Positions 3,667 to 34,627 of a stretch of 34,652 nucleotides of DNA are shown here, piece after piece. Under the pieces are notes generated by a model. It did no database searches. It was not told the DNA's origin and saw only the letters and a list, made by a program, of their open reading frames with translations. Source of the DNA: a virus. Made by a program: the position numbers and the translations under genes. The stretch spans positions 1 through 34,652 of IMG/VR virus record IMGVR_UViG_3300046660_000184. One strand, written 5' to 3'. Each line of letters opens with the position of its first letter. The stretch's first letter is position 1.

Positions 3667-3863
3667 TGACGAAGCGTACGAGCGCATCGCCTGCGGAAGC
3701 CATGCGGGCCTTCGATTCCCTCCCGAAACCGCTGCGACAAGCCATCGCGAGCGCGGCCTTTGTCTACGACCCGAAGGAGATCGCCGCGCGCATTGCCAAG
3801 GGCCGGCGGCCGCAAACCATCCTACGCGGCATTGTCCGTTATGAGGGGAGGGCGGCGCAATGA
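3666..3863 (+). CDS. Small hypothetical protein (65 aa), DUF6525-like
   Basis: The start at 3666 shares one base with the previous stop (TGATG). An upstream in-frame ATG at 3606 lies inside the previous gene and is not needed. The sequence AFDSLPKPLRQAIASAAFVYDPKEIAARIAKGRR is a short helical domain that resembles the DUF6525 type of rhizobial and phage proteins, from memory. It ends with an ATGA overlap with the ParB/methyltransferase gene. The function is unknown; a DNA-associated role is possible from context. Confidence 0.65.
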   Translation: MTKRTSASPAEAMRAFDSLPKPLRQAIASAAFVYDPKEIAARIAKGRRPQTILRGIVRYEGRAAQ

Positions 3864-5404
3864 ATGCGGTCTTCACGGCACAGCAGCGCGTGCAGACAAT
3901 CATGGACGCAGCCCTGCGCGACGGCAAGGTGCGCAGCGCCGACCACAATGAACGTCGGACCTGCATCAAGCTCAACGTCAAGGGCATGCTCCGTCGCGAC
4001 AGCAAGGATGCGGACCTTTGGTATCCGACCGAGCGCGCCAAGAAGAAACTGCCGTCGCCGCAGGCTATCGCGGCGGAACAGTTTGTTCCGGCGGGAGCAC
4101 GCGTCGCGATCTGGCGGGATATCGACACCATCGACATCGGATATCGGTTGCGCGGCGCCGATCAGGCCAAGGTGGATGCGCTGAAGCCGTCCTTTCAGGA
4201 GATCGGGCAGAAGACCCCGATCACGGTTTTCGGCAAGCTCGACGATGCCAGAGTGGCGCTGTCGGCCGGGCTGCATCGGTTGCAGACGGCAACGCAACTC
4301 GGCTGGAAGCAGGTGCTTTGCTTTCATGAGGAAGGCGACGACCTCGACCGTGAGCTTTGGGAGATCGACGAGAACCTTTGCCGTGCCGAACTGACGGCGG
4401 CTGACCGGGCGCTGTTCGTCTTCCGGCGCAAGGAAATCTATCTGCTGAAGCACCCGGAAACGGCGCAGCATGTGGCAGGCGGAAAAGCACGACATTCAGC
4501 AAGCGCAAAGTCTGCGTTTGCTGTCGCCACCGCAGAGGCGACCGGACAGGCAGTGCGAACCGTTCAGCTCGACGCCGAACGCGGGGCCAAGATTTCCGAC
4601 ATGGCTCTGCACCTGGTGCGCGGCACGCGACTAAACAGCGGTTCATTCCTCGACCGGCTGAAGCAGATCCCGCAGGACAGGCAGGTGCTCTATGTCGAGG
4701 CTGCGCTCGACGAGGAGAGGCGCAAGGCTGCGGACGTGAAGGAGAACCGCACCAAGAAGATGCAGCACTCCCGCATGATCCGTACTTCGCTGATCAATGC
4801 CATTGCGGAAAGCGGGACGCTGGTTGTGGGGGAGATGCCGCGTGCAGCCTTCGCAGTCGGTTATTGCGACGTGCCCTGGCAACAGGAGGCCTGGAGCGAC
4901 GAGACCGGTCAGGATAAGGGGCTGCGCTATCCCTCGATGTCAGTCGACGAGCTGATGGCACTCTGCGCTGGCGAGCGCAGCCCGTTCACGCGGGATGCTG
5001 TGCTCTACTTCTGGGCCACCACGAACCGGCTTCACCATGCGATGAAGATCATCGAGGCTTGGGGCTTCGACTACGTGAGCGCGATCACATGGGACAAGGT
5101 CAATATCGGCATGGGCCGGTGGGTGCGGGACCGCACTGAACACCTGCTGATCTGCAAGCGCGGCAACTTTCCCGGTATCGACCTTTATACGGCCAAGCCG
5201 GAAAGTCTCTACAGCGAGGCGAAGACCGAGCACAGCCGAAAGCCGGTTTGGTTCGCGGAAGAGATCGAGCGGCTTTATCCCGACATGCGCAAGCTGGAGC
5301 TTTTCCAGCGCAGGGAGAGCCTGCGGACGGGCGATATCAGGCTTAACGGCAAGTGGGAGTTTTGGGGCAATCAGGCAGGGGCGCCGGAAGGCGAGGCCGC
5401 ATGA
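3860..5404 (+). CDS. ParB-like domain fused to MT-A70 adenine methyltransferase
   Basis: The 514-residue protein has a ParB/Spo0J N-terminal-like domain at about 86-200 (VDALKPSFQEIGQKTPITV, then AGLHRLQTAT at 136-145 and the ENLCRAELTAADRA region) and, after a helical linker, an MT-A70 methyltransferase domain at about 325-505. Motif IV reads CDVPW at 336-340 where the family usually has DPPW. Supporting family features are LYFWATTNRLHHAMKIIEAWGFDYV and ITWDKVNIGMGRWVRDRTEHLLICKRG. The expected product is N6-methyladenine in phage or host DNA, with the ParB part supplying DNA binding. It lies directly before a cytosine methyltransferase; no matching restriction enzyme is visible, which fits self-protection against host restriction. 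Coupled by ATGA to both neighbours. Confidence 0.9.
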   Translation: MNAVFTAQQRVQTIMDAALRDGKVRSADHNERRTCIKLNVKGMLRRDSKDADLWYPTERAKKKLPSPQAIAAEQFVPAGARVAIWRDIDTIDIGYRLRGADQAKVDALKPSFQEIGQKTPITVFGKLDDARVALSAGLHRLQTATQLGWKQVLCFHEEGDDLDRELWEIDENLCRAELTAADRALFVFRRKEIYLLKHPETAQHVAGGKARHSASAKSAFAVATAEATGQAVRTVQLDAERGAKISDMALHLVRGTRLNSGSFLDRLKQIPQDRQVLYVEAALDEERRKAADVKENRTKKMQHSRMIRTSLINAIAESGTLVVGEMPRAAFAVGYCDVPWQQEAWSDETGQDKGLRYPSMSVDELMALCAGERSPFTRDAVLYFWATTNRLHHAMKIIEAWGFDYVSAITWDKVNIGMGRWVRDRTEHLLICKRGNFPGIDLYTAKPESLYSEAKTEHSRKPVWFAEEIERLYPDMRKLELFQRRESLRTGDIRLNGKWEFWGNQAGAPEGEAA

Positions 5405-5700
5405 TCGCTTTCCTCCCTGACGTTGACCATCTGAATGATGCTGAGACCGACCAGCAGCGAGCGCGATGGCTTCTGCGCTGCTCACTGTCGCTGCTATTGC
5501 GCGACGAAAGCCATATCCGACGCCGGTTGCAACTGGCGAATTTCCAACTTGGCGTCGTCTATCTCGATGCCGAGCTTTCCTTCCTTCGCAATCCGCGCCG
5601 CGACGACGGCGGCCCGATCGATCTGATCGAGATCGCGGCCGCGCGTGGCCGCATGGACAGAATCGCATGCGGCCTGCCGCCGCGACACATGGGGGCTTGA
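5401..5700 (+). CDS. Hypothetical protein (99 aa) between two methyltransferases
   Basis: Starts at the ATGA overlap with the previous stop, and its TGA overlaps the next ATG by one base. An in-frame ATG at 5353 lies inside the upstream gene and is less likely. The protein looks helical and charged (DAETDQQRARWLLRCSLSLLLRDESHIRRRLQLANFQLGVVYLDAELSFLRN). No known motif is seen. Its conserved coupling to the methyltransferases suggests a partner or regulator of DNA modification, but that is inference. Confidence 0.65.
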   Translation: MIAFLPDVDHLNDAETDQQRARWLLRCSLSLLLRDESHIRRRLQLANFQLGVVYLDAELSFLRNPRRDDGGPIDLIEIAAARGRMDRIACGLPPRHMGA

Positions 5701-7592
5701 TGTACACCGAACAGCTATTCGACAGTCTGATGGCGTCCAGCACCGCGCCCATCTTCGGAAGCGATATCGCGCCGCACTTGCGCAAGATTATCGACAATTT
5801 TGCAGGTGGCGGCGGCGCATCCGAGGGCATCAGGATGGCGCTCGGGCGGTCGCCGGACTACGCGCTGAACCATAGCAAACCGGCGCTGGCGCTGCACGAG
5901 GTCAACCATCCGGAGACGATCCATCTCTCGGAGAATATCTACAAGGTCGATCCGCTGGACCATTTGGCCGGCGAGCATATCGGCCTCGGCTGGTTCTCTC
6001 CTGACTGCAAGCACTTCTCCAAGGCCAAAGGCGGGAAGCCTGTTGAACGCAATATCCGTGACCTGGCTTGGACCATCGTCCATTGGGTCGAGCGCATCCA
6101 GAAAAGCGGCGGCAAGCTCGACGTGATTATCATGGAGAACGTCGAGGAATTCCAATATTGGGGGCCACTCGTCGAGACCGAGCGCGGATTGATGCCCGAT
6201 CCGGAGCGGAAAGGCGAGACGTTCCAGAAGTGGTGCAAGGAACTGCGAAAGCTCGGCGGCAAGATCCAGAAGCGCGAGCTTCGGGCTCGTGACTACGGCG
6301 CCCCGACCATCCGCAAGCGCCTGTTTGTCATCGTCCGATTCGACGGTCTGAAGATCGTCTGGCCGAAGCCTACCCACGGCGCGCCGGATGATGCGGACGT
6401 GATCGCAGGCCGCAAGCAGCCATGGCGGATCGTAGCGGATTGCATCGATTGGAGCATCGCATGCCCCTCGATCTTCGATACGTCAGAAGAGATATGGGAA
6501 AAGCATGGCGTTCGGGCTGTACGGCCTTTGGCAGTCAACTCCCATGCTCGCATCGCTCGCGGCATGGATCGGTTCGTGATCCAAGCGAAGCGGCCTTTCC
6601 TCGTCAATCTGACGCATGGCGGACGCCTGGAGGATATCGCGGAACCGGCAAGGGTGATTACTGCGGCGCATCGCGGTGAAAAGGCGCTCGTTGCGCCCTC
6701 GATCCAGCGCTTCAACTCCGGCGCTACGGGTGTCGACATGCGCGGCCAGATGCCGACGATCACAGCCAACGGCTTCATCAAGCGGCCAGGTGGCGCTGCC
6801 CCCCTAGGCTTGCTGGCACCGGTTTTGACCTATGCGCAGCAGGGCGGATCCTGCCGGCCAGTCGACGGACAGGCGCACACGATAACGGCCAGTGATAAGG
6901 ATCAGAACGCGGTCCTGTGTGCCTTCATGGCCCAGCACAATAACGACAGCCGCCGCGTCGGCGGGGTCAATCCGGGCAGACCGATGGACGAGGCGGCCTC
7001 GACGATCACGCAGAGCGGTAGCCATCAGCAATTGGTCTCCGCCTATGTTGCGCGCCAGTTCGGCACTTCGACCGGCCACGCGATCGACGTGCCGTCAGGC
7101 ACCATCATGGCGGACGGGCAGGGCAAGAGCCAGTTGGTCATGCCGTACCTGCAATCTTATTACGGGACGGGGGATGGCGGCTGCGAGGATGAGCCATGCC
7201 GCACGGTGACGACCAGAGACAGGTTTGGCCACGTCGAGGCCGTAGTCGGCATACCGCCGTTCACGGAGGCTCAGGCGGCTCGTGCGCGGCTGGTGGCCGA
7301 CTTCATGCGCTCGCATGGCCTATGGGATGATCGCGAGTTCGTGACGATCGATTTCGACGGCATCACCTTCGTCATCGTCGACATCGGCATGCGGATGCTG
7401 ACGCCGCGAGAACTCTACAACGCGCAGGGCTTCCCCCGGAACTACGTCATCGATCGCGATGTGGACGGAAACGTCTTCTCAAAATCGGTGCAGGTGTCAT
7501 GCGTCGGCAACAGCGTATCGCCGCCCGTCGCGGCCGCACTGGTCGTCGCCAACTGCAATCATATGGCGGTGCCGGAAAGGATGGCGGCATGA
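5700..7592 (+). CDS. C5 DNA cytosine methyltransferase
   Basis: The 630-residue protein shows the C5 methyltransferase motifs in order: FAGGGGASEG (34-43, SAM binding), SPDCKHFSKAKGG (100-112, with catalytic Cys103 in PDC rather than the usual PPC), ENVEEF (146-151), RARDYGAPTIRKRLFVI (195-211, motif VIII) and GNSVSPPVAAALV (603-615, motif X). Between motifs VIII and X lies a long region (about 316-520) built of repeated units containing TIT-like cores at 319-321, 353-355, 394-396, 435-437, 468-470 and 502-504. The start at 5700 overlaps the previous stop; an open extension upstream to 5466 lies inside the previous gene. It methylates cytosine C5 in DNA, probably to evade restriction. Confidence 0.92.
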   Translation: MYTEQLFDSLMASSTAPIFGSDIAPHLRKIIDNFAGGGGASEGIRMALGRSPDYALNHSKPALALHEVNHPETIHLSENIYKVDPLDHLAGEHIGLGWFSPDCKHFSKAKGGKPVERNIRDLAWTIVHWVERIQKSGGKLDVIIMENVEEFQYWGPLVETERGLMPDPERKGETFQKWCKELRKLGGKIQKRELRARDYGAPTIRKRLFVIVRFDGLKIVWPKPTHGAPDDADVIAGRKQPWRIVADCIDWSIACPSIFDTSEEIWEKHGVRAVRPLAVNSHARIARGMDRFVIQAKRPFLVNLTHGGRLEDIAEPARVITAAHRGEKALVAPSIQRFNSGATGVDMRGQMPTITANGFIKRPGGAAPLGLLAPVLTYAQQGGSCRPVDGQAHTITASDKDQNAVLCAFMAQHNNDSRRVGGVNPGRPMDEAASTITQSGSHQQLVSAYVARQFGTSTGHAIDVPSGTIMADGQGKSQLVMPYLQSYYGTGDGGCEDEPCRTVTTRDRFGHVEAVVGIPPFTEAQAARARLVADFMRSHGLWDDREFVTIDFDGITFVIVDIGMRMLTPRELYNAQGFPRNYVIDRDVDGNVFSKSVQVSCVGNSVSPPVAAALVVANCNHMAVPERMAA

Positions 7593-8791
7593 GCCAGGAA
7601 GCGACAATCCGGCGTGGCGTGCGTAACGCCCGCTATGCGGCCATCCCCAATCACGTTTTCGAGGATAGCCGCCTTTCCATGGAAGCGCGGTGGCTGCTGA
7701 GCTACCTGCTGTCAAAGCCGGACAACTGGACCGTCGTCATCGGCGACATTTGCAAGCGTGGCGGCTGCGGCCGCGACAAGGCGCGCGGCATGGTCGCCGA
7801 GCTGGTGAAGCATGGCTACGCTGAGCGTGAACAGCAGCGCGCGGACGGCAAGTTCGGTGCGTCCGTGCTGGTGATCTTCGACGAGCCGCGCGACGGCGAA
7901 GGCGCTGGAAACGCTGGCGAAAGCGACAGTGTTGCATTTCTACCGCAGACGGATTTACCGGCGACGGCATTGCCGTCGCCGGTTTCGCCGTCGCCGGTAA
8001 ATCCGACACTAGTAAATACTGATTATCTAAAAAATACTGACTCCCACCAAGCGGGCGCTGGCGCTGAAGAGGGAGGATTGAAGCGATCTGATCGAAAGAA
8101 GATCGAGCGCGACTTCATGCTCTGGTACGCCACTTGGAAAAAGGGCGACGTCGATTTCGCCCGGAATTCATGGTTCGCCCTGTCGCCGGAAGAGCGCACC
8201 GAATGCGTGGAACGAACGCCGGCTTATCTGCGATGGGCAAAGCCCGAAGACATCATGGCGGCTGCGGTCTACCTCAAGAACCGCCATTGGCGCGATGTGC
8301 CTGAAGAGGTGATGGCAGCGCCGACGCGCGGCATTGCCAAGGTCTGCGGCAAGCTCTGGATGGGCACGCGGCTAGCTGCGCTTTCCAGGGAGCCGAAGGG
8401 CCGCATTATCTTCACCACGTTCGACGAGCGGGAGATCGCGGCTGGAAGGACCACCAGGGAGGCGCTGGTACACAGTAAGCGCCTTGAGCATGGTTGGCCG
8501 CTGGTGACCACCATGCGCGACATGGCGCGGCGCAAGGAGCCATTCGTGACCTCGCTGGATCTGCTGCCGCTCGTTTCGGACTTTCAGGGAATCCCTCGCG
8601 ATGACCCGCTGATCGACGCATGGGCCGCACTGCACCAACGGCGGGGTTGGCCATTCATCGAATTCGCGGCGGACTGGAACTACTTCCCACCGATCAACCA
8701 GAGCTCCGACAATCTAGATCAGGCCGTCGAGGACGCATTGACGGCTTTCCTTTCGACAATCAGCGAGGCGGGCAATGATGATGCAGCATGA
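7589..8791 (+). CDS. Winged-helix phage replication initiator-like protein
   Basis: The 400-residue protein starts at the ATGA overlap with the methyltransferase. Residues about 15-100 form a helix-turn-helix/winged-helix domain (FEDSRLSMEARWLLSYLLSKPDNWTVVIGDICKRGGCGRDKARGMVAELVKHGYAERE) of the kind seen in RepA-like and O-like initiators. A low-complexity Pro/Ser/Val linker (about 125-150) follows, encoded by repeats and AT-rich DNA that look like an origin (7953-8040). A Trp-rich C-terminal domain (about 170-390) then follows. By analogy with lambda O it would bind iterons within its own gene and recruit the host replication machinery. No helicase or loader gene is recognisable nearby. Confidence 0.75.
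   Translation: MSQEATIRRGVRNARYAAIPNHVFEDSRLSMEARWLLSYLLSKPDNWTVVIGDICKRGGCGRDKARGMVAELVKHGYAEREQQRADGKFGASVLVIFDEPRDGEGAGNAGESDSVAFLPQTDLPATALPSPVSPSPVNPTLVNTDYLKNTDSHQAGAGAEEGGLKRSDRKKIERDFMLWYATWKKGDVDFARNSWFALSPEERTECVERTPAYLRWAKPEDIMAAAVYLKNRHWRDVPEEVMAAPTRGIAKVCGKLWMGTRLAALSREPKGRIIFTTFDEREIAAGRTTREALVHSKRLEHGWPLVTTMRDMARRKEPFVTSLDLLPLVSDFQGIPRDDPLIDAWAALHQRRGWPFIEFAADWNYFPPINQSSDNLDQAVEDALTAFLSTISEAGNDDAA
7953..8040. other. Candidate phage replication origin inside the replication gene
   Basis: The 11-mer GCCGTCGCCGG occurs directly at 7972-7982 and 7987-7997 and inverted at 7958-7968. The outer copies form a perfect 16-bp inverted repeat (7953-7968 against 7987-8002). An AT-rich segment follows at about 8011-8040, including the run CTAAAAAATACTGA. 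Iteron-like repeats next to an AT-rich block within an initiator gene match the lambda O/ori layout. Confidence 0.6.
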
Positions 8792-9413
8792 TAAATTTGA
8801 AGGTGCACCGATTGCGATTGGTCTGGGTGAGCGGTTTGATGATCGGATGCGCCGAATCAGGGCAGACTTGCTGCGAGCCGCAACAGTCCGTGCCGCCGAT
8901 GATTCGCCCTGGTTTGCCATCCGCGTGATGTCCGGTCGGGAAATAACTGTGAAAAACACCCTGGATGATGTCGGTGTCGAAGCTGTCGTGCCGATGAGGA
9001 AAGGGCCTGAATATCGTCGCAGGCATCGCGTCATTCCTGCCAAACTTATCCCCGCGATGACCAGCTATGTGCTTGTTAGGTTCATCGCGAGCGACGATGC
9101 ATTTCTCGGGATTCAGGGTATGGATGATGTCATCGGCGTGCTTGGCGGGTGCATAAATCCGCACCGCGTCTCTAATGCAGAGGTCAACAGATTCAAAGCC
9201 TTGGCGGATGAAGGGGCGCTGGATTGGGAGAAGCCGACCATCATCTTCAAGGCGGGTGAGACGGTGCGCGTGAAGGAGGCGCCGTTTGCTTCGTTCTACG
9301 GAAAGATCGTTTCTTGCAGGGGAGACGGCAAGGGCGATGCTGTCGTCGAGGTGGGTATGTTCGGACGCATGACGGCGGTGCTGATGCCTCTTGCAATGAT
9401 CGAGAAGGTGTGA
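8775..9413 (+). CDS. NusG-like transcription antitermination factor
   Basis: This 212-residue NusG paralogue has a 44-residue charged N-terminal extension, an NGN domain (about 45-145, starting PWFAIRVMSGREITVKNTLDDVGVEAVVPM) and a KOW domain (about 157-212, IIFKAGETVRVKEAPFASFYGKIVS). NusG-family proteins bind RNA polymerase through the NGN domain and alter elongation; specialised paralogues such as RfaH and LoaP act on chosen operons. Three consecutive ATGs (8775, 8778, 8781) are possible starts inside the end of the replication gene. It is the last early gene and is followed at once by a structured element and then the HNH and packaging genes, where a lambda Q-type late activator would be expected. 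Confidence 0.88.
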   Translation: MMMQHDKFEGAPIAIGLGERFDDRMRRIRADLLRAATVRAADDSPWFAIRVMSGREITVKNTLDDVGVEAVVPMRKGPEYRRRHRVIPAKLIPAMTSYVLVRFIASDDAFLGIQGMDDVIGVLGGCINPHRVSNAEVNRFKALADEGALDWEKPTIIFKAGETVRVKEAPFASFYGKIVSCRGDGKGDAVVEVGMFGRMTAVLMPLAMIEKV

Positions 9414-9418
9414 GTACA

Positions 9419-9520
9419 AATCCGCCACGGATTATCCGATGATCCCGCAGTGAGCCCCTGAGAACGCCGTAACAGGCGGGAACGCAAGTTCCGGGGTCGG
9501 TACGCCGGTCGGACCCCGCC
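9419..9520 (+). promoter_or_regulatory. Structured intergenic RNA element downstream of the NusG paralogue
   Basis: The first hairpin is AATCCG (9419-9424), CCA loop, CGGATT (9428-9433). A compact fold follows at 9475-9520: GGC (9475-9477) can pair with GCC (9518-9520) to enclose GGAAC-GCAA-GTTCC (9479-9492, a GNRA-type tetraloop) and GGGGTC/GACCCC (9493-9498, 9512-9517), giving a three-way junction. It is not followed by a T run, so it is not a simple terminator. It lies between the antiterminator gene and the HNH gene. A role as recognition element is inferred. Confidence 0.5.
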
Positions 9521-9618
9521 CTGACAGCCTCAAGATGGAGGCATCGATTCAGGGCCAGTGCGAAAGCTATGAGACGATGACAGGCGGCCGAGAGGTCGCC
9601 TTTGTCGTCTTAAGAGGT

Positions 9619-9987
9619 ATGGGCAGACTCTCTTCCATCGCACCACGACTGAAGACATTGGGCGCTCGAATTGCCACCATGTCGAGAGAAGAGGCTGAAG
9701 CTCAGCGCTTCCGTGATCGTGACCGCAACGTCGGTTGGCGCAAATGGTACAAGACAGCACGTTGGCAGAAGCTGCGCATGGTCGTGCTGGTGCGCGATCT
9801 ATTCACCTGCCAGATGAGCGGGTGCGGTCGCATCGAGGCTGATACCTCGCAGCTCGTCGCCGACCACAAGATACCGCACCATGGTGACGAGGCGTTGTTC
9901 TGGGATGAGAACAACCTCCAATGCCTGTGCAAGCCATGCCACGACAGGCTGAAGCAGAAAGAGGAACGCGTTCAGTTCAGACGTTAG
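9619..9987 (+). CDS. HNH endonuclease
   Basis: With the start at 9619 the protein has 122 residues and begins MGRLSSIAPRLKTLGARIA, which is how I recall phage relatives beginning. An earlier in-frame ATG at 9535 would add 28 residues; neither start has an ideal ribosome site. The HNH fold is clear: CQMSGC (64-69), DHKIPHHGDE (82-91, with catalytic His83), NNLQCLCKPCHDR (98-110, with Asn99 and His108), and Cys pairs that can hold a structural zinc. HNH nucleases next to terminase genes in HK97-type phages assist cos cleavage and packaging. Here an antisense gene (9984-10328) separates it from the terminase genes. Confidence 0.88.
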   Translation: MGRLSSIAPRLKTLGARIATMSREEAEAQRFRDRDRNVGWRKWYKTARWQKLRMVVLVRDLFTCQMSGCGRIEADTSQLVADHKIPHHGDEALFWDENNLQCLCKPCHDRLKQKEERVQFRR

Positions 9988-10328
9988 TTGGGCCAACCTC
10001 CTGCAATCTGCAGAGCGAAACCCGCAATCGCTATTGCGATGGCTAAATACGCGACAGAACGTCGGCGCTTCATGCTGGCGTCCGAAAGTAGAATGCGCTG
10101 ATCGATCGCAGCATTGAAGTCTCGCTGCTGTTGATCTTGCGTTTCCTGATCGGGCGCGAAGACACCATAACGCACGCTAAATATCTTGCGCTCAATTGCG
10201 ATAGTGGCGTCGCGCCCCTCGCGTTCACCATGCAACGACGAGACTAGGTCCACCGATAGCAAGATAAAACTGATTAAGTCCAAGAGCAGTCCGACTTCCG
10301 AAAGCCATGCCGAGACGTGGGTGGACAT
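9984..10328 (-). CDS. Two-segment membrane protein, antisense moron
   Basis: A 114-residue protein on the opposite strand to all surrounding late genes. An excellent ribosome site (AGGAGGTGCT directly before ATG at 10328-10326) supports it as a real gene. Hydrophobic segments lie at about 12-30 (GLLLDLISFILLSVDLV) and 92-110 (VAYLAIAIAIAGFALQIAG), joined by a charged loop rich in Gln and Asp. No family is recognised. Its 3' end overlaps the HNH stop region by four bases. The isolated antisense position suggests a moron expressed from the lysogen, perhaps altering the host envelope or excluding other phages; this is inference. Confidence 0.75.
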   Translation of the reverse strand: MSTHVSAWLSEVGLLLDLISFILLSVDLVSSLHGEREGRDATIAIERKIFSVRYGVFAPDQETQDQQQRDFNAAIDQRILLSDASMKRRRSVAYLAIAIAIAGFALQIAGGWPN

Positions 10329-10380: not shown

Positions 10381-10447
10381 GTGGGGGGGTGGGCAAAACT
10401 CCGGAACCGCCTACCGCCTAGACCCGCGTCCCCCTCACGTAGAGATT
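10381..10447. other. Candidate cos (DNA packaging) site
   Basis: Directly upstream of the small terminase gene is a non-coding GC-rich element. It contains GTGGGGGGGTGGGC (10381-10394) and, 31 bases on, GCGTCCCCCTCAC (10426-10438), which are partly complementary, followed by a T7 run. G-rich blocks with this GTGGGNCAAA...GACCCGCG layout recur ahead of terminase genes in related phages as I remember them. The exact cleavage positions cannot be read from sequence alone. Confidence 0.45.
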
Positions 10448-10455
10448 TTTTTCCT

Positions 10456-10935
10456 GTGAACGAGAATTTCGACCTCTTCGGTAACCCCTTCGTCGTGCCT
10501 GACCGCAAGGTCGGTCGGCCTGCACACGAGGCAACCGAGAAAACCCGCAATAGAGTCAAGATGTTAGTGGCGCTTGGATGGGCGAACCCACGCATTGCGA
10601 ATGCTTTGGCGATCTCACTCCCGACTTTGCGGAAGAATTATTTTCACGAGCTGAAGAAGCGGGAAGCAGCTCGCGATCAGCTCGAAATGCGCCGCCTCGA
10701 AATGGCGTGGGATATGGCCCAATCCGGCAATGTCGGTGCCTTCAAGGAATTCGGCCGTCTCATGGAGCGCAATGACCAGATGATGGCTGCCGCATCATTC
10801 AGCAGTGAGAGCGAGCCCAAGAGGGAGAAGAAGGAAAGCGTCGGCAAAAAGGAAGCCGCCGCGCAGGCAGCGGAGACAGCCGGCGATAATAGTGAATGGG
10901 GCGATGACTTGCGCTTTCCGGGGACGGTAAACTGA
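10456..10935 (+). CDS. Terminase small subunit-like protein
   Basis: The start is set at GTG 10456, giving 159 residues beginning VNENFDLFGNPF; the frame is open to 10186, but that extension runs through the cos-like region and antisense gene. A helix-turn-helix is visible at about 30-65 (NRVKMLVALGWANPRIANALAISLPTLRKNYFHELKKRE), followed by a helical region and a Lys/Glu/Ala-rich tail. Small terminase subunits bind cos or pac DNA and hand it to the large subunit. It is one base pair short of abutting the large terminase gene. No strong ribosome site is visible. Confidence 0.75.
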   Translation: MNENFDLFGNPFVVPDRKVGRPAHEATEKTRNRVKMLVALGWANPRIANALAISLPTLRKNYFHELKKREAARDQLEMRRLEMAWDMAQSGNVGAFKEFGRLMERNDQMMAAASFSSESEPKREKKESVGKKEAAAQAAETAGDNSEWGDDLRFPGTVN

Positions 10936-10936
10936 C

Positions 10937-12649
10937 ATGTCGGTCCATGCTGACAGCGGGCAATTTCGCAGTCGGTGGGTGACTGCTTGCCCGGATTGGG
11001 AAGAGCGCATCACTTCCGGTCGCTCGCTCGTGCCGGACTTGCCTCTGTTCGAGGATGAGGCCGAAAAGGCGCTTCGCGTATTCAAGCGCCTTCGGGTTCC
11101 CGATGTGATCGGGCAACCGACATATGGCGAAGCCTGCGGTCAATGGGTTTTCGATTTCGTTCGGGCGCTCTTCGGCAGTTACGATGCGAAGAAAAAGCGG
11201 CGTATGATCCGCGAGTTCTTCATGCTCGTGCCGAAGAAGAACGGCAAGAGCAGCATTGCTGCCGCGATCATGGTTACGGCGGCAATCCTCAACCACCGTC
11301 CGGAAGCGGAGCTGCTGCTGATCGCGCCGACGAAGAAGATCGCCGATATCGCCTTCAAGCAGGCAGCGGGCATTATCCGACTTGACCCGGAGCTGTCGAA
11401 AATCTTCCACCAGCAGCAGCATCAACGGACGCTGACACATCGGATATCTCTCGCCGTCATCGTCATCAAGGCGGCTGACGCCGATGTAATTACTGGTTCC
11501 AAGGCAACATTCATCCTCATCGACGAGACGCATGTCTTCTCGAAGAAGGCTAAGGCGCATGAGGTTTTCGTAGAGATCCGCGGTTCTCTTGCGGCACGAC
11601 CGGACGGCTTTCTGTTGCAGATTACGACGCAATCGAAAGACCCGCCTTCTGGCGTGTTCAAGGCGGAACTGGATATTGCCCGCCAGGTGCGCGACGGCAA
11701 AATGCAACTGCCCATCCTTGCGGTTCTGTACGAGCTGCCCTTGCGCTTGTCGAAGGATGGCGGATGGAAGGACCCGAAGACATGGGGAATGGTCAATCCG
11801 AACCTGAATAAGTCGGTGGATGAAGCCTTCCTGGAAGACGAAATCGTCAAGGCCGAACATGAGGGTATCGGCCAACTGATGCTGATTGCCTCGCAGCACT
11901 TCAATGTCGAAATCGGCTTGGCACTCATGAACGACCGTTGGGGAGGCGCTGATTACTGGCTGTCCGCAACCGACAAATCTCTGACGCTGGACGCTCTACT
12001 AGAGAGATCGGAAGTCATTGTCGCTGGTATCGATGGCGGCGGCCTAGACGATCTGTTCGGCTTAACGCTGATTGGTCGGGAGAAACTTACCAAGCGTTGG
12101 CTGATGTGGAGTGCGGCATGGGCTCATCCGGACGTGCTTGAGCGCCGCAAGGATATTGCATCCGATTTGCTGGACTTCAAGAAGGATGGCGATCTGCGGA
12201 TCTGCGAAGATGCCACGCAAGACATCCGCGAAGCTGCTGACATCATCGTTCGCGTTCATGAGGCGGGGCTTTTGCCGCAGGAAGCGGGTGTCGGTCTCGA
12301 TCCCTATGGCGTTGCCGCCCTGGTCGACGAACTGGCATCCCGTGGACTTCCAGATGAGCTTTTCGTCGCCATTCGGCAGGGTGCTGCGCTCTCGCCGGCC
12401 ACATGGGGCATGGAGCGAAAGCTAAAAGACGGCACGCTTGTCCACGCCGACCAGGCCATGATGGTCTGGTGTACTTCCAATGCGAAGGTCGAGGTTCGCG
12501 GCGGTGCTGTGCTGATCACGAAACAGACAGCCGGCCGCGCTAAGATCGATCCGTTAGTGGCCGGCTTCAACGCCGGGATGCTGATGAGCAGAAACCCCGA
12601 TGCGACCGGCATCTCCGTCTACGAAGAACGCGGCATAAGGATGGTTTGA
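10937..12649 (+). CDS. Terminase large subunit
   Basis: The 570-residue protein is of the Terminase_1 (HK97-like) type. The N-terminal ATPase shows Walker A PKKNGKSS (99-106) and Walker B FILIDE (192-197) followed by THVFSKKA. The C-terminal nuclease domain begins at VAGIDGGGLDDLFGLTLIG (362-380, with Asp366 a likely metal ligand), and a later acidic segment, GVGLDPYGVAALVDEL, supplies another. It drives DNA into the prohead and cuts concatemers at cos. The start at 10937 follows the previous stop by one base. Length is normal for the family. Confidence 0.95.
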   Translation: MSVHADSGQFRSRWVTACPDWEERITSGRSLVPDLPLFEDEAEKALRVFKRLRVPDVIGQPTYGEACGQWVFDFVRALFGSYDAKKKRRMIREFFMLVPKKNGKSSIAAAIMVTAAILNHRPEAELLLIAPTKKIADIAFKQAAGIIRLDPELSKIFHQQQHQRTLTHRISLAVIVIKAADADVITGSKATFILIDETHVFSKKAKAHEVFVEIRGSLAARPDGFLLQITTQSKDPPSGVFKAELDIARQVRDGKMQLPILAVLYELPLRLSKDGGWKDPKTWGMVNPNLNKSVDEAFLEDEIVKAEHEGIGQLMLIASQHFNVEIGLALMNDRWGGADYWLSATDKSLTLDALLERSEVIVAGIDGGGLDDLFGLTLIGREKLTKRWLMWSAAWAHPDVLERRKDIASDLLDFKKDGDLRICEDATQDIREAADIIVRVHEAGLLPQEAGVGLDPYGVAALVDELASRGLPDELFVAIRQGAALSPATWGMERKLKDGTLVHADQAMMVWCTSNAKVEVRGGAVLITKQTAGRAKIDPLVAGFNAGMLMSRNPDATGISVYEERGIRMV

Positions 12650-31880: not shown

Positions 31881-32591
31881 TCAGTCTACCCGGATCAGCG
31901 CGCCGTCGGGTAAGGGACGTTGCAAGTCCTTCGCTTCAAGCCACGGCACCGTCAGCCATCGCTCGATCTCGTCCTCGTTCTTGAGGATCACCGGCATTGC
32001 CTTTGGGTGAACCGCTTTCACCTCGGCATTCGGCTCCGTCGTCAGGAAGCCGTAGAGATCGACAACAATCTCCCCTTCCTTCACCTTCCGCACCGATCGC
32101 CATTCTGGCACCCAAAGGCCGGCAAAGAACATTAGCGGGCGATCCTCGCCTCCAGCAAACCATGCGTTCGGGACGCGGCCTCCTTCGATCTTGCTGCCGT
32201 AGTCAGGCTCGGCAAACCGGTTGAACGGCACGACACACCGGTTTTCGACGCCGAGCCATCTCGCCCAATGCTTGCTCGATGTATTGCGAACGTTCGTGGT
32301 TCCGCCGTCCGGTTCCATCCGCAACAGCTCATCGAAGTTCACTTCCTTGCCCTTGGCTCGCAGCTTGTCAGCCCGCTTGCTCGCATTGTCGAGCAATGCC
32401 TTTTGAGACGAGGGAAGTCCCCAGCGCACCAAAGCCAGCTCTCGGCCGGCGTCGGTGTTGCGCACGATCGGCGCCATGCGATCCGGATAGACATCAAGCT
32501 CGGGCTCAAGATTGCCGGTGCTGTCGATCAGCGCCCTGGTGATGGCTCGGATCGCCTCCTGGTTCGACGTGATGTTGTATAAATTGCACAT
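31881..32591 (-). CDS. SRAP-domain protein (HMCES/YedK family)
   Basis: The start at 32591 is set by the invariant MCN opening and a GGGAGGAGG site, giving 236 residues; the frame is open upstream to 32714 but that would hide the catalytic cysteine. Expected residues are present: Cys2, Asn100 (TTNVRNTS), Glu128 (PFNRFAEPDY) and His195 (AVHPKAMPVIL). Proteins of this family bind abasic sites in single-stranded DNA and form a covalent crosslink through Cys2, protecting stalled forks. It is the second gene of an operon whose promoter overlaps a LexA-type box (33226-33240), which links it to the SOS response. Confidence 0.92.
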   Translation of the reverse strand: MCNLYNITSNQEAIRAITRALIDSTGNLEPELDVYPDRMAPIVRNTDAGRELALVRWGLPSSQKALLDNASKRADKLRAKGKEVNFDELLRMEPDGGTTNVRNTSSKHWARWLGVENRCVVPFNRFAEPDYGSKIEGGRVPNAWFAGGEDRPLMFFAGLWVPEWRSVRKVKEGEIVVDLYGFLTTEPNAEVKAVHPKAMPVILKNEDEIERWLTVPWLEAKDLQRPLPDGALIRVD

Positions 32592-32626
32592 TGCTGCGGC
32601 CTCCTCCCTATCCCACGGTCCAAACG

Positions 32627-33142
32627 TTAACCGCAGGCAAAGAGCCGGTCCATCGCAATCGCATCGACGAATTTCGTGACAGTGCTGGAAACATCCCCGT
32701 CGATGTCCAGCCATTCAGGGCCAATGAATATCCTGTCCCTTTCACGATTGATGGCGACAATAGCGCAAACCTGCCCGGCCGTATCATCGACCGCGAATTG
32801 CAGATCGCCGAAATAGAGGTCTGGAGGCACCTGGTAGAGTTGGGCCTGCTGAAAGCTCACGCCAGCTCGGCCGGCAATTTCAGAACGCAACGCCGGCACG
32901 GCCTTATCGGCCGCCATATCGGTCGGCGGCAGCCAGCAGAGTTGGACCTCTTCTTCATCGTCCTCGACCCCCAGAGTATCTAGAAGGACATACATTCTCC
33001 GGAGCTTCGCCAGCAGCGGCATGGACTTCGCCCTCGTGCCATTCTTCTGCCACTGGTCGAAGCAGTCCTCGCCGACGAATTTCACGAAGTCACTGAGCGC
33101 GTGAATGTCGTCAGAGGTGATTGTTTGATTTCCTTGTTGCAT
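32627..33142 (-). CDS. Hypothetical protein (171 aa), first gene of the SRAP operon
   Basis: The start at ATG 33142 is preceded by GGAG at good distance; the frame continues upstream to a TTG at 33187, which is possible but has no site. The protein has a helical start (QTITSDDIHALSDFVKFVGEDCFDQWQKNGTRAKSMPLLAKLRRMYVLLDTLGVEDDEEEVQLCW), an acidic middle and a beta-rich end. No family is recognised. As the gene directly behind the LexA-type box and upstream of SRAP, it may be an early SOS-induced phage gene. Confidence 0.65.
   Translation of the reverse strand: MQQGNQTITSDDIHALSDFVKFVGEDCFDQWQKNGTRAKSMPLLAKLRRMYVLLDTLGVEDDEEEVQLCWLPPTDMAADKAVPALRSEIAGRAGVSFQQAQLYQVPPDLYFGDLQFAVDDTAGQVCAIVAINRERDRIFIGPEWLDIDGDVSSTVTKFVDAIAMDRLFACG

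Positions 33143-34550: not shown

Positions 34551-34627
<77 letters not shown>

What the first reader, a model, noticed from the sequence alone, without database searches (positions are those of the whole stretch)
8775..9618. NusG paralogue next to a three-way-junction RNA: possible LoaP/RfaH-like late switch of a phage
The last early gene encodes an NGN-KOW protein. It is followed at once by a hairpin (9419-9433) and a compact element (9475-9520) that can fold into a three-way junction with a GCAA tetraloop, just ahead of the HNH and packaging genes. LoaP, a NusG paralogue, is known to need an RNA hairpin in the leader of its target operon. I infer that this protein reads the element to drive transcription through the long late operon, replacing lambda Q. 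I know of no well-characterised phage system of this form.
Basis: inference. Interest (0 to 1): 0.75.

Follow-up and report, generated by a model that had tools for sequence, protein, structure and literature searches.

The report
NusG-paralogue/RNA late switch of rhizobial phages
Phages of rhizobia and their relatives carry, between their early and late genes, a gene for a copy of the transcription factor NusG, then a previously undescribed folded RNA, then a transcription stop signal; the likeliest reading is that the protein and the RNA together let RNA polymerase run through the stop and switch on the late genes.

Summary
The NusG-like gene (8775-9413) is real. Around it lies a much better element. 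A 60-nt core (9514-9573: outer helix P1, inner hairpin P2, tetraloop hairpin P3) is followed within about 10 nt by an intrinsic terminator (9582-9601), and the first late gene starts 17 nt after that. A DNA pattern taken from the core, blind to the protein, found 189 loci with enough upstream sequence, and all 189 have the NusG paralogue just upstream. Retrieval by protein gave the RNA in 32 of 32 loci, although the proteins share only 25-86% identity with the query. The core shows strong compensatory base changes. Two unrelated terminase families swap behind this unit repeatedly. No Rfam family matches. I propose a LoaP-like but independent late antitermination switch in Hyphomicrobiales phages. 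The anatomy and linkage are shown. RNA binding and antitermination are inferred. The protein fails the LoaP and RfaH family cut-offs. New variant of a known kind.

The parts
8775..9413 (+). NusG paralogue (NGN + KOW) with an N-terminal extension of about 45 aa; last gene of the early/replication operon, overlapping the stop of the replication-initiator gene
   Evidence: Pfam NusG 9.9e-14; phrog_6386 6e-43; AF2 pLDDT 85, beta-barrel KOW; Foldseek best hits NusG
9435..9513 (+). 5' RNA domain: outer helix UCCGA/UCGGA (9435-9439/9509-9513), GUG/UAC (9450-9452/9501-9503), and a three-way junction with closing helix 9454-9458/9493-9498, arm A 9465-9468/9475-9478 and arm B 9479-9482/9489-9492 (loop contains GCAA)
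   Evidence: A5, 36 sequences of the window's subclade: 98.3% cells paired, 88 cells changed on both sides vs 28 shuffled (0/500), slid registers 31-44%; coordinates checked. Other clades look structurally analogous with different sequence (not formally scored)
9514..9573 (+). Core RNA element: P1 GCCCUGA/UCAGGGC (9518-9524/9549-9555), P2 GCCUC/GAGGC (9527-9531/9538-9542), P3 CAGUGC-GAAA-GCUAUG (9556-9561/9566-9571)
   Evidence: R1 80.9 bits, E 2.6e-22, single copy in the window; covariation 78 double-changed cells vs 20 shuffled, 93.8% paired vs at most 44% when slid
9582..9601 (+). Intrinsic terminator AGGCGGCC-GAGA-GGTCGCCT, then a short T tract
   Evidence: Terminator in this place in 141/164 unique loci, 77 distinct stem-loop sequences; controls 2/150, 8/746, 10/492; reverse strand 2/164; the only strong + strand terminator in the late region of the window
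9619..9987 (+). First gene behind the terminator: HNH endonuclease; likely start ATG 9619 (the ORF can be read from 9535, but 9535-9601 is the RNA element and terminator)
   Evidence: Pfam HNH 9.2e-6, phrog_589 3e-33; alignment with relatives; start chosen by me from position and conservation
10405..12649 (+). Probable TerS (phrog_12540, unnamed; TerS role inferred from position) and TerL (HK97-type) at the head of the packaging/late genes
   Evidence: phrog_12540 7e-45; TerL_ATPase 9e-18, phrog_9 7e-107

Best explanation
This is the early-to-late transcription switch of a large group of temperate phages of Hyphomicrobiales. RNA polymerase on the early transcript makes the NusG paralogue last, then transcribes a folded RNA and meets an intrinsic terminator placed 10-23 nt beyond the core element; the first late gene follows almost at once. 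At first most polymerases stop there. When the paralogue has built up it is recruited to the elongation complex through the nascent RNA (P1-P3 core, helped by the 5' junction domain) and makes that polymerase read through the terminator into the packaging and structural operon. SHOWN: the gene, the RNA structure (covariation), the terminator, their fixed order and spacing, the protein-RNA linkage and the swapping of packaging modules behind it. INFERRED: that the protein binds this RNA, that binding causes read-through, and that this is the main route to late genes.
For: Protein-blind pattern: 189/189 testable loci have the NusG paralogue ending 83-179 nt (median 132) before the pattern start. 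Reciprocal: 32/32 loci found by protein alignment carry the element at 39-81 bits. Unselected family sample of 299 genomes: 33 genomes with hits, 30 of them strong (>=46 bits; remaining hits <=28 bits), and 29/29 newly fetched strong loci have the paralogue. Covariation in the core and 5' domain. Terminator in 141/164 unique loci against 1-2% in controls, with 77 different sequences and clear strand preference. Start codon of the next ORF a median 18.5 nt after the stem, which leaves little room for a separate promoter in most loci. TerL alternates between GpA-type (53 loci) and HK97-type (47 loci), needing 25 changes on the paralogue tree (17 forced by starred branches), close to random (shuffled 30.9; 10/500 as low), while the RNA tetraloop class follows the protein tree (11 changes vs 20.8 shuffled, 0/500). 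Precedent: LoaP needs an RNA hairpin upstream of an intrinsic terminator (PMC12691694).
Against: No binding, transcription or mutant data. The protein is closer to housekeeping NusG than to LoaP or RfaH and no RNA-binding residues were identified. Gene and RNA are about 100 nt apart, so co-inheritance alone could follow from adjacency. 23/164 loci failed my terminator criteria (several have a visible stem my rule missed, some appear to have none). The window's T tract is weak (TTTGTCGTC). A late promoter inside the NusG gene or farther downstream is not excluded. No further strong + strand terminator lies in the window's late operon, so processivity over 20 kb is not specifically supported.
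Confidence: 0.75

Rival explanations
1. The RNA alone is the antiterminator (like HK022 put or Bacillus EAR), acting on RNA polymerase in cis; the NusG paralogue is a separate, merely adjacent early factor.
For: The core is far better conserved than the protein (near-invariant GUGC-NNNN-GCUAUG beside 25-86% protein identity) and sits right before the terminator; putRNA works without a dedicated protein and is about 70 nt with two stem-loops (PMC9378689).
Against: No case of the RNA without the paralogue in 189 loci or of the paralogue without the RNA in 32; tetraloop class follows the protein tree. Adjacency can explain part of this.
Confidence: 0.1
2. The terminator simply ends the early operon and the RNA is a 3'-end element or autoregulator of the NusG-like gene; the late genes have their own promoter elsewhere.
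For: A terminator after the last early gene is ordinary; promoters of these hosts are not covered by the scan.
Against: Next start codon a median 18.5 nt after the stem, so the first late gene sits directly in the read-through path; a 60-140 nt covarying RNA is not needed for plain termination.
Confidence: 0.1
3. The conserved stretch is a DNA signal of packaging (cos/pac) or a promoter ahead of the terminase genes.
For: It lies upstream of HNH, TerS and TerL, where packaging sites often lie.
Against: Paired changes on both strands of P1, P2 and the 5' junction show RNA-level pairing; the element is kept when the terminase family changes; -35/-10-like hexamers are not at promoter spacing. Covariation of P1/P2 also places the transcript start upstream.
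Confidence: 0.03
4. An attenuator with mutually exclusive folds: part of the element pairs with the terminator stem and a ligand other than the NusG paralogue decides.
For: Element and terminator are adjacent, as in riboswitch leaders.
Against: Terminator sequences vary freely (77 stem-loops) while the core stays fixed; inspection found no alternative pairing that tracks them (not exhaustively tested).
Confidence: 0.02

Closest known systems
LoaP with its UNCG-tetraloop hairpin (Bacillus velezensis dfn/mln leaders)
   Same: NusG paralogue; specific RNA hairpin in the leader; intrinsic terminator downstream; drives a long operon (PMC12691694)
   Different: Here in phages of Alphaproteobacteria; protein far below the LoaP cut-off (38 vs 125 bits); RNA is larger, with P1/P2/P3 core plus junction domain; P3 loop is GNNA or UACN, not UNCG; encoded directly before its target
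conAn system of Gram-positive conjugative plasmids (pLS20)
   Same: Two-part antitermination, a protein gene and an adjacent RNA at the head of a long operon (PMC8955417)
   Different: My reading did not check whether ConAn1 is related to NusG; here the protein is a NusG paralogue and the context is a phage early/late boundary
HK022 putRNA
   Same: Phage-encoded structured RNA in the nascent transcript that suppresses termination; about 70 nt (PMC9378689)
   Different: put works without a dedicated protein and controls early genes; here a protein is always present and the position is late
Lambda Q / GafZ of the Caulobacter GTA
   Same: Position in the programme: turns on late or structural genes by antitermination (PMC7171158, abstract; PMC11150451)
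   Different: Q loads at a promoter-proximal DNA site; GafZ is reported to act with host NusA, NusG and NusE; neither is described as a NusG paralogue with its own leader RNA
RfaH and ops
   Same: Specialised NusG paralogue
   Different: 16 bits vs RfaH cut-off 144.5; modelled KOW is a beta-barrel, not an alpha-hairpin; signal here is RNA with covariation, not ops DNA
'Transcription antiterminator' of phiLM21-like prophages (Sinorhizobium)
   Same: Probably the same gene: present in all phiLM21-like prophages and next to HNH at the end of the early region (PMC12429752)
   Different: That paper notes only the gene as an antiterminator; my term search of it found no RNA structure or transcription-terminator mechanism

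Membership tests
NusG/Spt5 superfamily | NGN domain and KOW domain | tested here: met
   Pfam NusG 9.9e-14; KOW below cut-off by sequence but beta-barrel in the AF2 model
LoaP | Score above the NCBIfam LoaP cut-off (125 bits) | tested here: not met
   38 bits
LoaP | RNA hairpin with UNCG-type tetraloop in the leader | tested here: not met
   P3 loops are GNNA or UACN; window has GAAA
LoaP | Intrinsic terminator downstream of the hairpin in the target leader | tested here: met
   141/164 loci
LoaP | Binds the hairpin and overcomes NusA-stimulated termination | not testable with these tools
   needs biochemistry
RfaH | Score above the NCBIfam RfaH cut-off (144.5 bits) | tested here: not met
   16.1 bits
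RfaH | Fold-switching KOW (alpha-hairpin when autoinhibited) | tested here: inconclusive
   AF2 predicts beta-barrel only; a model cannot exclude switching
HK022 put / EAR / any Rfam family | Match to a curated covariance model | tested here: not met
   No Rfam hit in 9380-9680 beyond a chance match
PHROG 6386 transcription antiterminator | HMM match | tested here: met
   6e-43; but the family also matches housekeeping NusG in most genomes, so it does not discriminate

The most novel reading that the evidence does not exclude
A new RNA family and a new class of specialised NusG paralogue form an obligate protein-RNA pair that replaces Q as the late-gene switch in Hyphomicrobiales phages, and moves as a cassette between phages with unrelated packaging machines.
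Probability: 0.65. Interest if true: 0.85.

Novelty: new variant of a known kind. Interest (0 to 1): 0.76.

Why it matters
Late-gene control in temperate phages is best known through Q-type proteins. This would be a different, widespread solution: a NusG paralogue read in by a large folded RNA next to its own gene. It gives a ready-made system, with many natural variants, for asking how a NusG paralogue is targeted by RNA, and it makes late gene onset in phages of nitrogen-fixing and plant-associated bacteria directly testable. It also adds an RNA family absent from Rfam and turns a vague 'antiterminator' annotation into a testable mechanism.

Tried and rejected
Folding energy of the upstream interval: mean z -0.07 over 60 loci, uninformative, although covariation shows structure there. 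RNAalifold on the raw MAFFT alignment of the core found few pairs because P2 was misaligned; the named structure and the covariance model resolved it. phrog_6386 over genomes lit up housekeeping NusG in 348 of 385 genomes and was dropped. Class-wide model search: apart from the centre genome only 3 weak hits (24-27 bits), none beside a NusG paralogue, taken as noise. Residues separating GNNA from UACN loop classes: no clean signal. Promoter scan: at chance, and sigma-70 consensus only. Packaging-site, promoter and attenuator readings: see rivals.

Full report
WHAT WAS CHECKED. The window is an IMG/VR virus record of 34,652 bases. ORF 8775-9413 encodes a 212-aa NusG-like protein (Pfam NusG 9.9e-14, weak KOW; phrog_6386 6e-43). 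Its profile is nearest to housekeeping NusG (106 bits against E. coli NusG), then to PDB 8f5g, titled a NusG-RNA complex (65 bits), then RfaH (45 bits). It lies well below the curated cut-offs for LoaP (38 of 125), UpxY (55 of 100), RfaH (16 of 144.5) and NusG itself (65 of 135.7). AlphaFold2 gives an NGN domain and a beta-barrel KOW behind a helix of the N-terminal extension (pLDDT 85).

THE CONSERVED THING IS LARGER AND SHIFTED DOWNSTREAM. Blastn of the gap region found phages whose proteins are only about 30% identical but whose non-coding DNA behind the NusG-like gene is 86-89% identical over 82-106 bases (phi3LM21, phi2LM21). Alignment of 15 loci showed a near-invariant stretch at window 9514-9573, with a terminator right behind it. 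A pattern from this stretch, GAYTCARGGYMRGTGCNNNNGCTATG, was used without reference to any protein.

LINKAGE. Of 201 element copies held, 189 have a NusG-paralogue ORF ending 83-179 nt (median 132) before the pattern start; the other 12 have under 800 nt of upstream sequence and could not be tested, so the score is 189 of 189. 157 of these are unique contexts. The reverse test, retrieval by protein alignment, gave 32 loci (25-86% identity); all 32 carry the element at 39.5-81 bits just behind the gene. In 299 genomes of one family, 33 had hits, 30 of them at 46 bits or more; the rest lie at 28 bits or below. All 29 newly fetched strong loci have the paralogue.

RNA STRUCTURE. In the core, P1 (7 pairs), P2 (5 pairs) and P3 (CA-[GU]-GC-NNNN-GC-[UA]-UG) were counted on 76 pattern-derived sequences (65 cells changed on both sides against 20.9 in shuffles) and on 63 sequences aligned to the model and mostly not chosen by the pattern (78 against 20.2, 93.8% paired against 18-44% when slid). 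The second alignment was fitted to the model, so it leans towards the structure. P1 changes from C-G to U-A, and rarely G-C, in step on both strands. P3's loop is GNNA or UACN. In the window's subclade the upstream stretch forms an outer helix around a three-way junction (98.3% paired, 88 double changes against 28.1, slid registers 31-44%). That structure was taken from RNAalifold on the same alignment, which favours it over slid versions. Other clades appear to have an analogous junction with different sequence, and a 'short' clade has a smaller version; these were not formally scored. Rfam has no matching family.

TERMINATOR AND LATE GENES. In 141 of 164 unique loci a strict rule finds a stem-loop with a T tract within 110 nt after the core, the stem starting 10-23 nt after GCTATG; random, coding and shuffled controls give 1-2%, the reverse strand 2 of 164. 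There are 77 different stem-loop sequences, so the function is kept and not the sequence. The next ATG lies a median 18.5 nt after the stem, 66% within 40 nt. In the window this is the only strong + strand terminator of the late region.

A MOVABLE UNIT. Behind the element, 53 loci have a GpA-type and 47 an HK97-type large terminase, two clusters without detectable similarity here. On a tree of 92 paralogues the terminase type needs 25 changes (17 forced by starred branches; shuffled mean 30.9, 10/500 as low), so it is nearly unlinked, while the tetraloop class needs 11 (shuffled 20.8, 0/500). Some long branches make the tree rough. The RNA is only about 100 nt from the gene, so closeness explains part of this.

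MECHANISM. Early genes run from a Cro-like gene opposite an S24-type repressor to the NusG paralogue on one strand. The simplest working model is that the early transcript reaches the terminator; the protein it encodes last then acts through the RNA just made to carry polymerase into the late genes. LoaP shows that such a protein-RNA pair can do this (PMC12691694). Steps that are inferred: RNA binding, read-through, dependence of late genes on it. The promoter position rests on gene order alone.

KNOWN OR NOT. The gene is annotated as antiterminator in phage records and in a paper on phiLM21-like prophages, where all prophages have it. I found no description of the RNA, the terminator or a mechanism in eight full-text searches; the library lacks most subscription journals, so this is not proof of novelty. 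I file it as a new variant of a known kind: NusG-paralogue antitermination with a leader RNA, in a new host group, a new setting and with a new RNA.

Noticed in passing
window 3860-5404 and 5694-7592: Two DNA methyltransferases in the early region: MT-A70 type fused to a ParB-like N-terminal part (my reading) and a C-5 cytosine methylase. Related phages also carry methyltransferases before the NusG gene.
   Followed up: partly
window 9984-10328, minus strand; L011 4292-4618, minus strand: A small reverse-strand ORF with no Pfam match between HNH and the terminase genes; Nostoc phage JY10 has a reverse-strand ORF in a similar place. Its reverse orientation in the late operon is odd.
   Followed up: no
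L011 (PP395642.1, 'Nostoc phage Nsp-JY10'): A phage recorded from the cyanobacterium Nostoc carries the same NusG paralogue and RNA, otherwise seen only with Hyphomicrobiales hosts. The true host may be an associated rhizobial bacterium.
   Followed up: no
L156 and L174 (Brucella rhizosphaerae, same contig); G470 (3 hits), G502 (2 hits): Several elements in one genome, probably several prophages, each with its own copy; possible cross-talk between prophage switches.
   Followed up: no
window 34551-34627 and 31884-32714: tRNA-Pro (GGG) at the right end (possible attachment site) and a host-like SRAP (SOS-associated peptidase) gene on the other strand; I noticed no integrase in the ORF list (not searched for specifically).
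   Followed up: no
L050, L118, L148, L161, L182, L198: Loci with the core element but no terminator by my rule; they may have lost it, use Rho, or have a stem my rule missed.
   Followed up: no
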